Source: Planctomycetota bacterium
Lineage (GTDB): Bacteria > Planctomycetota > Planctomycetia > Gemmatales > Gemmataceae
DNA: 47,220 nucleotides
Direction of reading: 5' to 3'
NCBI GenBank assembly: GCA_021413735.1
Contig: JAIOPV010000140.1
Span: forward strand, 1 to 47,220
A program made the translations under genes and the position numbers. Shown here in pieces: positions 1,369 through 46,069 of this stretch (position 1 is the stretch's first letter; each line of letters opens with the position of its first letter). The notes beneath the pieces are model-generated. The model saw nothing but the letters and a program-made list of their open reading frames with translations, searched no databases and had not been told where the DNA came from.

Positions 1369-1384
1369 GGAGAAAAGAGGAAGC

Positions 1385-1500
1385 GTTTTATCCGCAGATT
1401 ACGCAGATAGACACAGATTTGAAAACAGAGAAGAAAGATCAATTTGATTTCTGCTCTGTCTTTATAATCTGTGTCTATCTGCGTAATCTGCGGATAAAAC
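1385..1500. repeat. Long inverted repeat with perfect 35 bp arms between convergent genes
   Basis: Arms at 1385-1419 and 1466-1500 are perfect reverse complements. The 46-base centre contains further complementary pieces (ACAGAG with CTCTGT, ATCAA with TTGAT), so the whole 116 bases could fold into one long hairpin. The arms are built on the motif CGCAGATTACGCAGAT, which resembles short repeats scattered through many environmental bacterial genomes. It lies between the ends of purQ and the aminotransferase and could act as a two-way terminator. It is AT-richer than its surroundings. Confidence 0.9.
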
Positions 1501-1513
1501 TCTTCTGTCCTAA

Positions 1514-2793: not shown

Positions 2794-4059
2794 ATGCATA
2801 TCGCACAGTTCGTTCACCGATACCCGCCGGCGCTCGGCGGCGCTGAGGCGTACACGGCTCGGCTGTGCGAACATCTCGCGGGTCACGGCGACAGCGTCAC
2901 CGTGTGGACGACGACCGCCGTGGAGTTGAATGAGTTGTGGGGTGTTTGCCACTTGCGGCGTAGCAGTGAGAGCGCCAGTGCAACGCCGCAAGCGGCGAAG
3001 AACCCAACGGTGAATCGTTATCCCCCCCTGCACTTCCCTGGTCGCCGCTACATCCTGAAAGCGCTCTCGCTGCTGCCCATACGCCCGTGGCAATGCCTGA
3101 CCACGCCGTGCAATCCAGTGTGCCCTCAGATGTGGCGCGACGCAGGCAACTTCAACGGTCCGCTCGACGCGGTTCACGCCACCGCGTTCCCGTATTCGTT
3201 TCCGATCATGTGCGGGCTCAGACTCGCGAGGCGACGAAGGGTGCCGTTCTTCATCACGCCGTTCCTGCACATCGGCGACATCGACAACCCCAACGACCTC
3301 ACCCGGCGACAGTACACGAAGCCGCATCTGCGCTGGTTACTGCAACAGGCAGATGGAGTGTTCGTGCAAACGCGAGCCGAGAGTGACATTGCGTTGTCAC
3401 TCGGCGTGAGGGAAGATCGCGTTCACCTGCAAGGGTTGGGCGTGGACCCTGCCGAATGCACCGGTGGCATTCGTGCCGCGTCGGATGAAGTGATCGTCGG
3501 TCATCTCGCGAACAACAGCGAGGAGAAGGGAACGTGCGATCTGTTGCGAGCGGCCGAAAGCCTGTGGGATGCGGGTCAGCGGTTCCGCGTGGTGTTGGCA
3601 GGTCCGGAGATGCCAAACTTCCGTGCGTTCTGGGAAGGCTTCGCGAGAAAGCAGCACGTCACGCGGCTCGGAGTGCTGACCGACGAGCAGAAGCGTGATT
3701 TCTTCGCGGGAATTGATGCGTTTGCGTTACCATCGCGGACGGATTCGTTCGGGTTGGTGCTGCTGGAAGCATGGGCGAACGCGAAACCGAATCTCGTGTA
3801 TCGGGCTGGCGGTCCGGGGGAGCTGGTTCGCCACGAACGCGATGGCTTGCACGCACGCTGCGGCGACGTGGCGGAACTCTCACAACAACTTGCGCGACTC
3901 GTGACCGATGCGGAGCTGCGTCACCAACTCGGTGACAATGGGTTGTCACGGCTGCCGAGTGAGTTCGGGTGGGATCGCTCGCTGTCGCTGTTCCGCGGCG
4001 TGGTGGCGAGCACCCCACGGACCACCAAGGCTCGTCAGAGCGAAGCGATCCCTGTGTGA
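2794..4059 (+). CDS. Glycosyltransferase family 4 (GT-B fold)
   Basis: Predicted 421-residue retaining glycosyltransferase that moves a sugar from a nucleotide donor onto a glycan or lipid acceptor at the membrane face. The N-terminus, MHIAQFVHRYPPALGGAEAY, is typical for GT4: GG loop, then E. The C-terminal donor domain shows SEEKGTCDLLRA, FALPSRTDSFGLVLLEAWA (an acidic-x7-Glu variant with Asp first) and GGPGELV. The start at 2794 matches this N-terminus; earlier in-frame starts give an unlikely leader. Residues about 50-75 are odd: they are encoded by a palindromic repeat inserted in frame (see 2948-2996). It ends 7 bases from the convergent HEAT-like gene with no terminator between. Donor and acceptor unknown. 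Confidence 0.87.
   Translation: MHIAQFVHRYPPALGGAEAYTARLCEHLAGHGDSVTVWTTTAVELNELWGVCHLRRSSESASATPQAAKNPTVNRYPPLHFPGRRYILKALSLLPIRPWQCLTTPCNPVCPQMWRDAGNFNGPLDAVHATAFPYSFPIMCGLRLARRRRVPFFITPFLHIGDIDNPNDLTRRQYTKPHLRWLLQQADGVFVQTRAESDIALSLGVREDRVHLQGLGVDPAECTGGIRAASDEVIVGHLANNSEEKGTCDLLRAAESLWDAGQRFRVVLAGPEMPNFRAFWEGFARKQHVTRLGVLTDEQKRDFFAGIDAFALPSRTDSFGLVLLEAWANAKPNLVYRAGGPGELVRHERDGLHARCGDVAELSQQLARLVTDAELRHQLGDNGLSRLPSEFGWDRSLSLFRGVVASTPRTTKARQSEAIPV
2948..2996. repeat. Palindromic element inside the GT4 coding sequence
   Basis: GCCACTTGCGGCGT (2948-2961) pairs with ACGCCGCAAGCGGC (2983-2996) with one mismatch. The same core (GCTTGCGGCGT / ACGCCGCAAGC) forms the perfect intergenic palindrome at 12213-12260. 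Here it is translated, keeps the frame, and adds a Ser/Ala-rich stretch (LRRSSESASATPQAAK) that looks foreign to GT4 proteins. The centre has diverged, which suggests an older insertion under selection to stay open. Confidence 0.75.
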
Positions 4060-8701: not shown

Positions 8702-8758
8702 TCCGAGCCCGAGCGCCAGCGAGGTAACGCTTATCCCTCGCTGGCGCTCGGGCTCGGA
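8702..8758. repeat. Perfect 23 bp palindrome after PSCyt gene
   Basis: Arms at 8702-8724 and 8736-8758 are perfect reverse complements around an 11-base loop; core CGAGCGCCAGCGAGG. It starts 7 bases after the upstream stop and ends 41 bases before the DUF1501 start. There is no T-run, so it is not a classic terminator. It may be a dispersed palindrome that stabilises or partly terminates the mRNA. Confidence 0.88.
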
Positions 8759-12212: not shown

Positions 12213-12260
12213 TTGCCGCTTGCGGCGTCGCGCTCCTGAGCGCGACGCCGCAAGCGGCAA
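12213..12260. repeat. Perfect 23 bp palindrome between convergent genes
   Basis: Arms 12213-12235 and 12238-12260 are exact reverse complements separated by two bases (core CCGCTTGCGGCGTCGCG). It fills the gap between the copper-fusion gene (stop at 12198) and the CoaB-like gene, whose stop codon begins at 12261. It shares its core with the element inside the glycosyltransferase gene, so this is a repeat family. Position suggests a two-way transcript end. Confidence 0.9.
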
Positions 12261-44055: not shown

Positions 44056-44804
44056 CGCCGGATGTGGTGGTTGACATCGGCAACACCCGCGTCAAGTGGG
44101 GCGTGTGCAAAGGCAACCGCGTCACCGAAGTGCGACGACTTTCGCTCGACGAACCTGCGATCTGGGATGCGGAGCTGGCAACACTTCCTCCGCGAACAGA
44201 GGCGCGTCGTTGGGCACTCGCGAGTGTTAACCCGCCTGCCCTCGCCCGGTTCCGGGACTGGTTACAGCCTCACGGTCGCATTGCCGTCTTCGAAAACGCC
44301 ACCGCACTTCCGATTCGAGTGAATGTCGATGAACCCGCGAAGGTCGGGATTGATCGACTATTCGGAGCAATTGCCGCGAAGTCGCTTGTTCCCAAAGGCA
44401 CACCAGCCATTACCGTCGATGTTGGCACAGCGGTCACGGTGAACCTGATCGACGCCAATGGCGTGTTTCAGGGCGGCGCCATCTTCCCTGGACCGCGGTT
44501 GATGGGTCGCGCACTGCACGAACACACTGCGAAGTTGCCGTTGATTGATCTCGGCGAGGTCCCGGAAGTCAGACCCCCTGGCAAGAATACCGCAGACGCC
44601 ATCCGGGCTGGAATTGCAGCGGCAGTTCAGGGCGGCGTTGCTGTGTTGCTCGAACGTCTCGGGGCTCCGTGGCCGCGTTTGTTTCTCACCGGCGGGGCTC
44701 GCGGATCACTGTCGAAGTACCAGTTTCGGAACGTCGACGAAGTGGTTGAGTTGCCCACGCTCGTGCTCGAAGGTATTCGCATCGCGGCGGAGGCGTTGCC
44801 GTGA
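44052..44804 (+). CDS. coaX: Type III pantothenate kinase
   Basis: Predicted 250-residue CoaX, which phosphorylates pantothenate, the first step to coenzyme A. Its fold is ASKHA-type: phosphate motif DIGNTRVKWG (6-15), GIDRLFGAIAA, DVGTAVTVNLID near 125-136, GGAIFPGPRLMGRAL and FLTGGARGSLSK. Type III kinases need a monovalent cation and are not feedback-inhibited by CoA. It overlaps obg by 4 bases at the start and the mnmE-like gene by 4 bases (GTGA) at the end. The pathway's later CoaB-like protein is encoded at 12261. Confidence 0.93.
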   Translation: MTPDVVVDIGNTRVKWGVCKGNRVTEVRRLSLDEPAIWDAELATLPPRTEARRWALASVNPPALARFRDWLQPHGRIAVFENATALPIRVNVDEPAKVGIDRLFGAIAAKSLVPKGTPAITVDVGTAVTVNLIDANGVFQGGAIFPGPRLMGRALHEHTAKLPLIDLGEVPEVRPPGKNTADAIRAGIAAAVQGGVAVLLERLGAPWPRLFLTGGARGSLSKYQFRNVDEVVELPTLVLEGIRIAAEALP

Positions 44805-46069
44805 GTGACACCACGGTGTCACTGCTCACGCCTATCGGCGTCGGAGCCATCGCCACCATCGAAATCGCAGGTGATCGTGCTTGGGAACAGGCACGCCAAC
44901 TCTTCCGACCTAGTGGGAAGCCGCTGCCCGATTCGCCGGAACTGCATCGCTTCTGGTTCGGCACATGCGGCGATGGCGTCGGCGACGAAGTGATTCTCGC
45001 TATCACCGGTGCGCAGAGAGTCGAGATTCATTGCCACGGCGGACGGCGCGTAGTCCAGTGGATCATCGACCAGTTCCTGGCGAACAACGTGTCTTTGCCC
45101 TCCCCCCTTGTGGGGGAGGGTGGCGAGGCTTTGCGAGCCGGGTGGGGGGTGCTGCCTTCACAGCAGTTCGAGCCTTACCCCCCACCCGCCACTCGAAGAC
45201 TCGTGGCGACCTTCCCCCTTGTGGGGGAGGTCAAAAACCAACAACCCCTTAATGTGGCTCGCCTGTTGCAGCACGCTCCGACACTTCGCACCGCGGCGAT
45301 TCTGCTCGATCAACTTCACGGTGCGTTCGACAACGCCGTGCGGCATGTCCTCGAACTGCTCGAAGCGAACGACGCTTCGAATTACCCGGTGCTCCTCACA
45401 GAGTTCAGCGATCTCGTGCGGTTCGCACCGATCGGCAGGCATCTCGTCGAGCCGTGGAAGGTCGTCGTTGCGGGGCCGCCGAATGTCGGGAAGAGTTCGC
45501 TCGTGAACGCTCTCGCGGGCTATCATCGTGCGGTCGTTTCGGAGATCGCAGGCACCACTCGCGATGTCGTCAGCGTGCAACTCGCCTTCGATGGTTGGCC
45601 GGTCGAACTCACCGACACCGCTGGCTTGCGAGATGCGGAAGGACTCGAAGCCGAAGGCATAGACCGTGCGAAGTTGATGATCGCGGAAGCCGATTTGGTG
45701 CTGTGGGTGATCGACGGCACCGCCCCACAAATGCAGATGGCGAACGAGGACATTCCGCCGACGAAGTTGCTTGCCGTCATCAACAAGGCCGATGCGATAG
45801 TTGGCTGGGGGCCAGACCCGAAAGCAGGCGACACATGGGGAGCGTTGCTGGTGTCGGCAAAGACGGGGGCAGGGCTTCCCGAACTGGTGAAATGGATCAC
45901 AACGATATTTGTACCGGAGCCACCGCCGCCCGGTGCTGCCGTGCCGTACATGCCTGAACTCGCCTCCAACGTAACTGACGCCTACCTTGCCTTAGTGCAT
46001 GGCAATGGGAACGTTCGAGTCCGTGCCGAAGCGATTCGCCTTCTCCGCGACTGTCTGCAATCCGACTGA
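44801..46069 (+). CDS. MnmE/TrmE-like GTPase, short and interrupted by a repeat
   Basis: Predicted 422 residues, starting at GTG. MnmE with MnmG modifies U34 of some tRNAs. N-terminal domain 1-95 is divergent (SDTTVSLLTPIGVGAIATIEIAG, EIHCHGG). Residues about 98-145 (SPLVGEGGEALRAGWG, FPLVGE) are encoded by an inserted inverted repeat between the N-terminal and helical domains. The GTPase domain is complete: GPPNVGKSS (225-233), GTTRD (251-255), DTAGLRD (272-278), NKAD (328-331). After the G domain only about 50 residues remain, and the usual C-terminal CxGK is replaced by CLQSD. Without the insert the protein is about 370 residues, against about 450 for the family. It may be a divergent paralogue; another MnmE could exist. 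Confidence 0.85.
   Translation: MSDTTVSLLTPIGVGAIATIEIAGDRAWEQARQLFRPSGKPLPDSPELHRFWFGTCGDGVGDEVILAITGAQRVEIHCHGGRRVVQWIIDQFLANNVSLPSPLVGEGGEALRAGWGVLPSQQFEPYPPPATRRLVATFPLVGEVKNQQPLNVARLLQHAPTLRTAAILLDQLHGAFDNAVRHVLELLEANDASNYPVLLTEFSDLVRFAPIGRHLVEPWKVVVAGPPNVGKSSLVNALAGYHRAVVSEIAGTTRDVVSVQLAFDGWPVELTDTAGLRDAEGLEAEGIDRAKLMIAEADLVLWVIDGTAPQMQMANEDIPPTKLLAVINKADAIVGWGPDPKAGDTWGALLVSAKTGAGLPELVKWITTIFVPEPPPPGAAVPYMPELASNVTDAYLALVHGNGNVRVRAEAIRLLRDCLQSD
45094..45236. repeat. Inverted-repeat element inserted in the mnmE-like gene
   Basis: The left arm (about 45097-45150, CCCTCCCCCCTTGTGGGGGA onward) and right arm (about 45177-45232, ending TTGTGGGGGAGGTC) are imperfect reverse complements of about 54 bases, around a 26-base centre. 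Outer ends TTTG/CAAA also match. The insert is close to 140 bases and keeps the reading frame. Repeats whose translation reads SPLVGEGG-like are known from many bacterial genomes, but usually lie between genes. Confidence 0.85.

What the first reader, a model, noticed from the sequence alone, without database searches (positions are those of the whole stretch)
2948..2996. Palindromic repeat inserted in the glycosyltransferase coding sequence
The core of the perfect intergenic palindrome at 12213-12260 recurs inside the GT4 gene with one arm mismatch and a diverged centre, and is translated in frame. This is the second case in 47 kb of a repeat invading a coding gene.
Basis: seen in the sequence. 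Interest (0 to 1): 0.62.

Follow-up and report, generated by a model that had tools for sequence, protein, structure and literature searches.

The report
Repeat hairpins inside protein linkers
A short palindromic repeat that normally sits just after genes has been inserted, in reading frame, into a floppy loop of a sugar-transfer enzyme in a planctomycete bacterium, and related bacteria carry unrelated repeats at the same spot, so such loops seem to collect mobile repeats again and again.

Summary
At 2949-2995 the GT4 glycosyltransferase gene carries, with one arm mismatch and in frame, a copy of a high-copy palindrome: 136 exact copies in the 9.8-Mb host genome, reversed control 0. Of 59 copies sampled, 55 are intergenic, 53 lie within 30 nt of a stop codon, and 2 are inside predicted genes.

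The insert encodes residues 52-68, inside the loop that AlphaFold leaves unstructured (45-68). The larger finding is in the homologues: 13 of 47 GT4 loci (46 cover the linker) have an inverted repeat there, of nine sequence types, with arms up to 42-43 nt. Six of the eight types tested are common in their own genome; one is rare. Sister species carry unrelated types. One linker insert has a 91-nt identical intergenic copy elsewhere in its genome. A second, unrelated gene repeats the pattern in 12 of 19 loci, and an mnmE-like gene of this window holds another family.

Best reading: REP/REPIN-like elements insert widely and, inside genes, survive mainly in disordered linkers. Intragenic REPs are known; the scale of recurrence at one linker looks new. 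Transposase (RAYT) linkage was tested and not found for these families.

The parts
2794..4059 (+). GT4 glycosyltransferase gene, 421 aa from the ATG at 2794 (start inferred from homologues; the ORF opens at GTG 2740)
   Evidence: PF00534 6.6e-24, PF13579 3e-14; Foldseek: PglA, MshA, BshA
2938..3006 (.). full inverted repeat, 31-nt arms, 81% complementary, 7 nt between the arms
   Evidence: RNA fold z -7.0
2949..2995 (.). family-A core inside the GT4 gene: CCACTTGCGGCGT, 21-nt centre, ACGCCGCAAGCGG; encodes residues 52-68 of the 421-aa protein
   Evidence: family copies; AF2 residues 45-68 have pLDDT under 50
12213..12260 (.). perfect intergenic family-A palindrome between two convergent ORFs (ends 12198 on + and 12261 on -)
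44801..46069 (+). mnmE/trmE-like GTPase gene carrying another repeat in frame
   Evidence: PF10396 TrmE_N residues 5-98, PF01926 residues 220-314
45091..45240 (.). family-S element (about 150 nt) read in frame inside the mnmE-like gene (peptide ..SLPSPLVGEGG..PPPATRRLVATFPLVGE..)
   Evidence: 72% over 152 nt to the G022 GT4 insert; z -5.8

Best explanation
The stretch at 2949-2995 is an in-frame insertion of a REP/REPIN-like palindromic element into a GT4 gene. The host has over 130 close copies, in the sample mostly a few bases after stop codons. Such elements insert at many places; inside genes they are nearly always removed by selection, and survive where they fall in a disordered linker and keep the frame open. 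The GT4 linker between two N-terminal strands is such a place and has been filled repeatedly in different species, mostly by element families common in those genomes. Shown: identity with a high-copy family, in-frame reading, a low-confidence loop, different families in sister species, and (in G019) an identical intergenic twin of the linker insert. Inferred: that the elements move by transposition or a similar copying process, that selection rather than targeting explains the location, and that the enzyme stays functional.
For: Copy number: 136 exact copies in the host, control 0; 82 in G015, 6 in G013, 1 each in G016 and G024, 0 in the other 14 of 19 genus genomes. Location: of 59 copies (up to 4 mismatches) in 595,033 bases, 55 intergenic, 2 overlapping gene ends, 2 inside predicted genes; 53 of 59 within 30 nt of a predicted stop; 1 of 54 typed copies between divergent genes against 19.2 expected. 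Strong inverted repeats of the host sample: 109 intergenic, 23 overlapping a gene end, 3 inside genes, of 135, although 88% is coding (both window insertions score below that threshold and are not among the 3). Linker: 13 of 47 homologue loci have an inverted repeat there; 13 of the 19 repeats found in these genes lie in the linker. Own-genome families: G015 type 354 matches in G015; family B matches on both strands 212 in G010, 153 in G009, 250 in G024 (the pattern is nearly self-complementary, so one copy can count twice); family C 71 in G026; 30 copies in G016; S type about 40 other places listed in G022 and the G019 type about 30 in G019 (capped list). Recent copy: 91 nt, 100% identical, between two predicted convergent genes of G019. 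Tree: sisters G024 and G013 (support 0.97) carry different types; 9 state changes on 42 homologues. Structure: residues 45-68 are the only internal stretch of more than 4 residues with pLDDT under 50. Second gene: 12 of 19 loci have a linker repeat, of several types.
Against: No transposase linkage for these families: none of 11 Y1_Tnp loci of the host carries the family-A arm within the fetched flanks, up to 1.5 kb. Of 30 Y1_Tnp loci from 9 further genomes only one (L145, G019) holds a near-complete own arm, about 1.4 kb away. G010 has no Y1_Tnp match. The G013 insert type is rare in its own genome (7 matches, two of them its own arms) but has 47 in G015 and 25 in G024, while other families that G013 has in number (B; S) are not what its linker holds. 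The G044 type shows only 3 other places in the capped list, and the G052/G053 type was not tested. Presence alone needs only 3 changes on the tree, and the 9 changes by type are fewer than in any of 500 label shuffles (smallest 13), so inserts are partly inherited; one old insertion with later replacement of its sequence is possible. The window linker has 25 residues; of 22 measured linkers without a repeat 18 have 14-26 and four have 31-49, so the net gain in the window gene is small or nil.
Confidence: 0.8

Rival explanations
1. One ancestral insertion in the genus, whose palindrome is repeatedly overwritten by gene conversion from abundant copies in each genome, so the linker tracks resident families without new insertions.
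For: Presence/absence needs only 3 changes. G009 and G010 share recognisable loop sequence yet differ by paired changes in both arms (TAAAGGG/CCCTTTA versus TGAAGGG/CCCTTCA). G000 and G016 share site and linker length, but each has the variant common in its own genome (GGCGT versus GGCTT).
Against: Several types share no evident sequence from which conversion could start (A, B, S and C; inspection). Two groups outside the genus also have a repeat (G044; G052/G053) while their sisters G047 and G051 have none. The rare G013 type is not what conversion from the commonest local family would give.
Confidence: 0.35
2. Targeted insertion: the linker DNA is a preferred target, and the concentration is not due to selection.
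For: 13 of 19 repeats in the gene fall in 32 of 408 columns, binomial p 7e-11 (not corrected for shared ancestry).
Against: A second gene shows the same in an unrelated interdomain linker, which fits tolerance of linkers better than one target sequence. By eye the flanks of different inserts share no motif; no motif search was run.
Confidence: 0.15
3. The hairpin in the linker has a function (for example mRNA structure that slows translation between subdomains), so a palindrome is kept although its sequence changes.
For: Strong folding (z -7.0). Arms stay complementary while sequences differ.
Against: 33 of the 46 loci that cover the linker have no repeat of score 12 or more. In G009 the reading frame breaks in the repeat, and in G011 and G012 the repeat is decayed.
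Confidence: 0.1
4. Chance similarity in a GC-rich gene.
For: The window is 61% GC and single arms such as CTTGCGGCG also occur alone (27791).
Against: 0 of 100 shuffles match; reversed-pattern control 0 in 9.8 Mb.
Confidence: 0.01

Closest known systems
Intragenic GTAG/CGTC REPs (PMC3733652; passages found and the section on genome distribution read)
   Same: High-copy palindromes mainly between convergent and same-direction genes and near gene 3' ends; some lie inside ORFs, and more than half of those inserts encode 20-30 residues. The paper says that the different REPs in recB of X. campestris and X. oryzae sit at about the same site.
   Different: Here nine sequence types share one linker in one genus and its neighbours, and a second gene repeats the pattern. 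Family A has no fixed tag: the four bases after the stem read GTAG, GTTG or GTCG in most listed copies (inspection).
REPINs and RAYTs (PMC3116915, passages found; PMC2817692, start of the abstract in the listing)
   Same: Two inverted REP-like arms form one unit; REPs are mostly extragenic.
   Different: No RAYT-type (Y1_Tnp) gene was found flanked by these families in the loci tested. Another palindrome of the host does flank one on both sides (L115).
Rickettsia palindromic elements (RPE), as described in PMC3733652; original papers not read
   Same: Palindromic repeats inserted in frame in many ORFs.
   Different: Different lineage; sequences were not compared. Whether RPE families reuse one linker in this way I did not check in the RPE literature.

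Membership tests
REP (repetitive extragenic palindrome) | short palindrome in high copy | tested here: met
   136 exact copies with 11-nt arms (GCGT type) and 158 with the wider pattern in the host
REP (repetitive extragenic palindrome) | mainly extragenic, near 3' ends | tested here: met
   55 of 59 intergenic; 53 of 59 within 30 nt of a predicted stop codon
GTAG/CGTC REP superfamilies | fixed GTAG or CGTC tetranucleotide at one end | tested here: not met
   by inspection of the copies listed the bases after the stem vary (GTAG, GTTG, GTCG and a few others); no formal scan was made
REPIN | two inverted REPs that occur together as one unit elsewhere in the genome | tested here: met
   listed G015 REP matches are mostly close inverted pairs; the whole 91-nt G019 element is identical at a second locus. 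For family A the paired arms recur, but the centres differ between copies
RAYT-mobilised REPIN | element flanks a RAYT gene of the same genome | tested here: not met
   0 of 11 host Y1_Tnp loci; 1 of 30 loci of 9 further genomes had a near-complete own arm, about 1.4 kb away; further Y1_Tnp matches were not fetched
Rickettsia palindromic element | in-frame insertion in ORFs | tested here: met
Rickettsia palindromic element | sequence relationship to RPE families | not tested
   no RPE sequence was compared
Known RNA families (Rfam 15) | match above the gathering score | tested here: not met
   only one tRNA in the window

The most novel reading that the evidence does not exclude
Disordered linkers of certain genes act as standing capture sites for palindromic mobile elements in Gemmataceae-type planctomycetes. 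Each lineage refills the same linkers with element families of its own, so linker peptides are continually rewritten from mobile DNA, a steady source of new protein sequence.
Probability: 0.35. Interest if true: 0.75.

Novelty: new variant of a known kind. Interest (0 to 1): 0.58.

Why it matters
It gives a natural series of experiments: the same loop of the same enzyme replaced by unrelated repeat-encoded peptides in about a dozen species. That makes it testable how often mobile palindromes enter genes, where proteins tolerate them, and whether repeat-derived peptides become part of working proteins. It also warns that linker peptides such as SPLAGEG (G022) or LPDGRGSP (G015) can be repeat-derived.

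Tried and rejected
Chance similarity was rejected. An intrinsic terminator was considered for family A; in the 15 copies printed with flanks no T run follows the stem (typical flanks TTTCGCC...GGCGAAA), judged by eye. RAYT linkage was tested and not found for these families, but other palindromes lie near 4 of the 11 host Y1_Tnp loci (L112-L115), so mobilisation by such an enzyme acting in trans is not excluded. An Rfam scan gave only a tRNA. The 100-kb and 97-kb samples of G010 and G013 held no hit of their own GT4 insert; whole-genome patterns then gave 212 strand matches of family B in G010 and 7 in G013. Literature: Gemmata with 'repetitive extragenic palindromic', 0 papers; Gemmataceae with 'palindromic repeat', 3 papers, judged not on point from title and start of abstract; searches on intragenic REPs and REPINs returned PMC3733652 as the paper on point; some searches gave background. 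I say only that these searches of an open-access library did not show this pattern in planctomycetes.

Limits: gene calls come from my own hexamer gene finder, not a standard annotation, and the same model was used for the other genomes. The 40 host stretches were chosen because they hold listed copies, so they are not random. Repeats were judged by an ungapped inverted-repeat score with arbitrary thresholds. P0002 was chosen because its host copy has a repeat, so its host hit (and the same type in G016 and G022) is not independent. Many genomes are MAGs; in G018 the GT4 frame runs into an unrelated sequence after the palindrome and in G009 it breaks, either of which may be assembly error; a TAG flagged in G012 was not examined. 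G011 was put in family B by eye and G012 from its decayed repeat for the tree count. The listings are capped; only their totals are whole, and one search scored 40 candidates per genome.

Full report
What is there. The window is contig C119 of a 9.8-Mb, 293-contig genome. The GT4 gene at 2794-4059 carries at 2949-2995 a palindrome with 13-nt arms, one of which has one mismatch. It is in frame and encodes residues 52-68 of a 421-aa protein with Glycos_transf_1 and Glyco_transf_4-type domains.

The family. Pattern searches found 135 copies with exact 12-nt arms and 136 with exact 11-nt arms in the host, against 0 for the reversed control. In the genus, G015 has 82, G013 6, G016 and G024 1 each, and 14 of 19 genomes none. 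Each arm is itself self-complementary (GCCGC-TT-GCGGC), and inner stem bases usually vary together (TAGC/GCTA, TTGC/GCAA, TCGC/GCGA; inspection). In 595,033 bases of the host with 509 predicted genes I found 59 copies allowing 4 mismatches: 55 intergenic, 2 overlapping gene ends, 2 inside predicted genes. One of those two is the window copy; the other lies at the first residues of a 129-aa ORF and is probably a start mis-call. 53 of 59 lie within 30 nt of a predicted stop codon. Divergent gaps hold 1 of 54 typed copies against 19.2 expected from their length, convergent gaps 17 against 5.8. Whatever its role at gene ends, a copy inside a gene is exceptional. The wider class agrees: of 135 inverted repeats of score 16 or more in the sample, 3 lie inside genes and 23 overlap a gene end. 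That count misses weaker ones: both insertions of the window score below the threshold. The other samples gave 0 of 7 (G010), 2 of 17 (G024), 2 of 36 (G015) and 3 of 22 (G013) inside genes; the G024 and G015 figures include their GT4 linker, and the second G015 repeat lies at the C-terminus of the same GT4 gene.

The site. Tblastn against 95 family genomes found relatives in 92, paralogues included. Several same-genus matches break at residues 68-94 of the query, where the repeat sits. I took 50 loci; 3 are partial (G018, G020, G090) and were left out of the main count, and one of the 47 others (G091) does not reach the linker. 13 of the 47 have an inverted repeat of score 12 or more in the linker, and 6 repeats lie elsewhere in these genes, the strongest in G044. 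The linker repeats are of nine types: A in the host and G016; a GGTCGCGG type in G015; a GTCGCTGACG type in G013; a CCCGCAAGGGCGG type in G019; S in G022; B (CCCTCCCT) in G009, G010 and G024; C (GGCGAGCGGGG) in G026; one in G044; one in G052 and G053. Arms are perfect over 29 nt in G015 and G019 and over 42 nt in G024. Of the partial loci, G018 (52-nt arms, 2 mismatches) and G090 also have one, and G020 a short hairpin at its contig end; G011 and G012 have decayed B-like repeats below threshold. Measured linkers with a repeat have 25-76 residues; of 22 without one, 18 have 14-26 and four 31-49.

Host match. Six of the eight types tested are common in their own genome. The G015 type has 354 matches in G015, 256 in G019, 52 in G044, 10 in G013, 9 in the host and 0 in G016. 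Family B has 212 strand matches in G010, 250 in G024, 153 in G009, 161 in G012 and 72 in G018, against 1 in the host, whose control gave 4; one copy can match on both strands. Family C has 71 in G026, 14 in G011, 12 in the host and 1 in G010. S has about 40 other places listed in G022 and also many in G013, and the G019 type about 30 in G019. G016 has 30 copies of CCGCTTGCGGC...GCCGCAAGCGG, 20 of the 25 listed in the GGCTT variant that its GT4 insert also has. The G013 type is the exception, with 7 matches, two of them its own arms, against 47 in G015 and 25 in G024. The G044 type shows 3 other places in a capped list; the G052/G053 type was not tested. In G019 the whole linker element is found, 91 nt and 100% identical, between two predicted convergent genes, about 3 nt from each; this is the best sign of recent copying.

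Tree. A FastTree of 42 homologues without the linker columns puts G024 and G013 together (support 0.97) although their inserts differ, and groups G015, G022 and G000+G016, which have three different types. Parsimony gives 9 changes of type, 8 if the G015, G013 and G019 types (shared GGCGAACC ends) are merged, and 3 for presence alone; 500 label shuffles gave 13 or more changes. So inserts are partly inherited, and the type turns over faster than presence; independent insertion and sequence replacement cannot be fully separated.

Structure. AlphaFold2 on an alignment of 7 sequences gave mean pLDDT 80 for the best of five models (the others 49-66). Segments under 50 are 11-14, 45-68 and the C-terminus; 45-68 contains a short predicted helix (45-53) and lies between strands 34-40 and 72-76. 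Foldseek best hits are PglA, MshA and BshA. The repeat thus encodes a loop that the model leaves undefined; low confidence in a variable insert is also expected when few sequences align there.

Generality. I took one of the three genes with a strong internal repeat in the host sample, an acyltransferase/dehydratase protein of 1080 aa, and compared 19 genus loci. In 12 the linker around residues 455-489 holds an inverted repeat of score 13 or more; 3 further repeats lie elsewhere; the G018 locus does not reach past the linker. Types differ: C-like in the host, G016 and G022; B-like in G019, G013, G024, G025, G020, G026 and G010; others in G015 and G017 (by eye). In the window itself the mnmE-like gene holds an S-type element between its TrmE_N match and its GTPase domain.

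Mechanism. Shown: family identity, depletion in coding DNA, linker concentration, type turnover, a recent twin copy. Inferred: the movement process, continued enzyme function, and selection as the filter. RAYT mobilisation is not supported by linkage for these families, so I file the elements as REP/REPIN-like and not as RAYT-mobilised REPINs; a different host palindrome does sit on both sides of one Y1_Tnp match (L115).

Novelty. Intragenic REPs, and different REPs at about the same place of recB in two Xanthomonas species, are in print (PMC3733652, section read). What my searches did not show in print is the scale: one linker filled by nine types across a genus and its neighbours, and the same in a second gene.

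Noticed in passing
window 45091-45240: Second in-frame repeat in the window: an S-type element of about 150 nt inside an mnmE-like gene, 72% identical to the element in the GT4 linker of G022.
   Followed up: partly
window 1380-1505: Long intergenic inverted repeat (45-nt arms, 93% complementary, 36 nt between) of unrelated sequence.
   Followed up: no
window 8702-8758; L115 1276-1333 and 1943-1994: The same palindrome (GAGCCCGAGCGCCAGCGAGG core) occurs in the window and on both sides of a Y1_Tnp match (L115 1501-1695) of the host genome: a candidate RAYT-linked element of another family.
   Followed up: no
L112, L113, L114: Other strong inverted repeats lie within the flanks of three further host Y1_Tnp loci.
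   Followed up: no
L046 (G018): After the GT4 linker palindrome the frame runs into unrelated sequence; a rearrangement or misassembly at the repeat.
   Followed up: no
L033 and L212 (G009): The GT4 frame breaks inside the linker repeat (stops; N and C parts in different frames), and a stop also appears in the linker of the acyltransferase gene of the same genome.
   Followed up: partly
L051 (G061): A different loop of the same GT4 gene reads FLPSPTGRAVVGEGG, which looks repeat-derived too.
   Followed up: no
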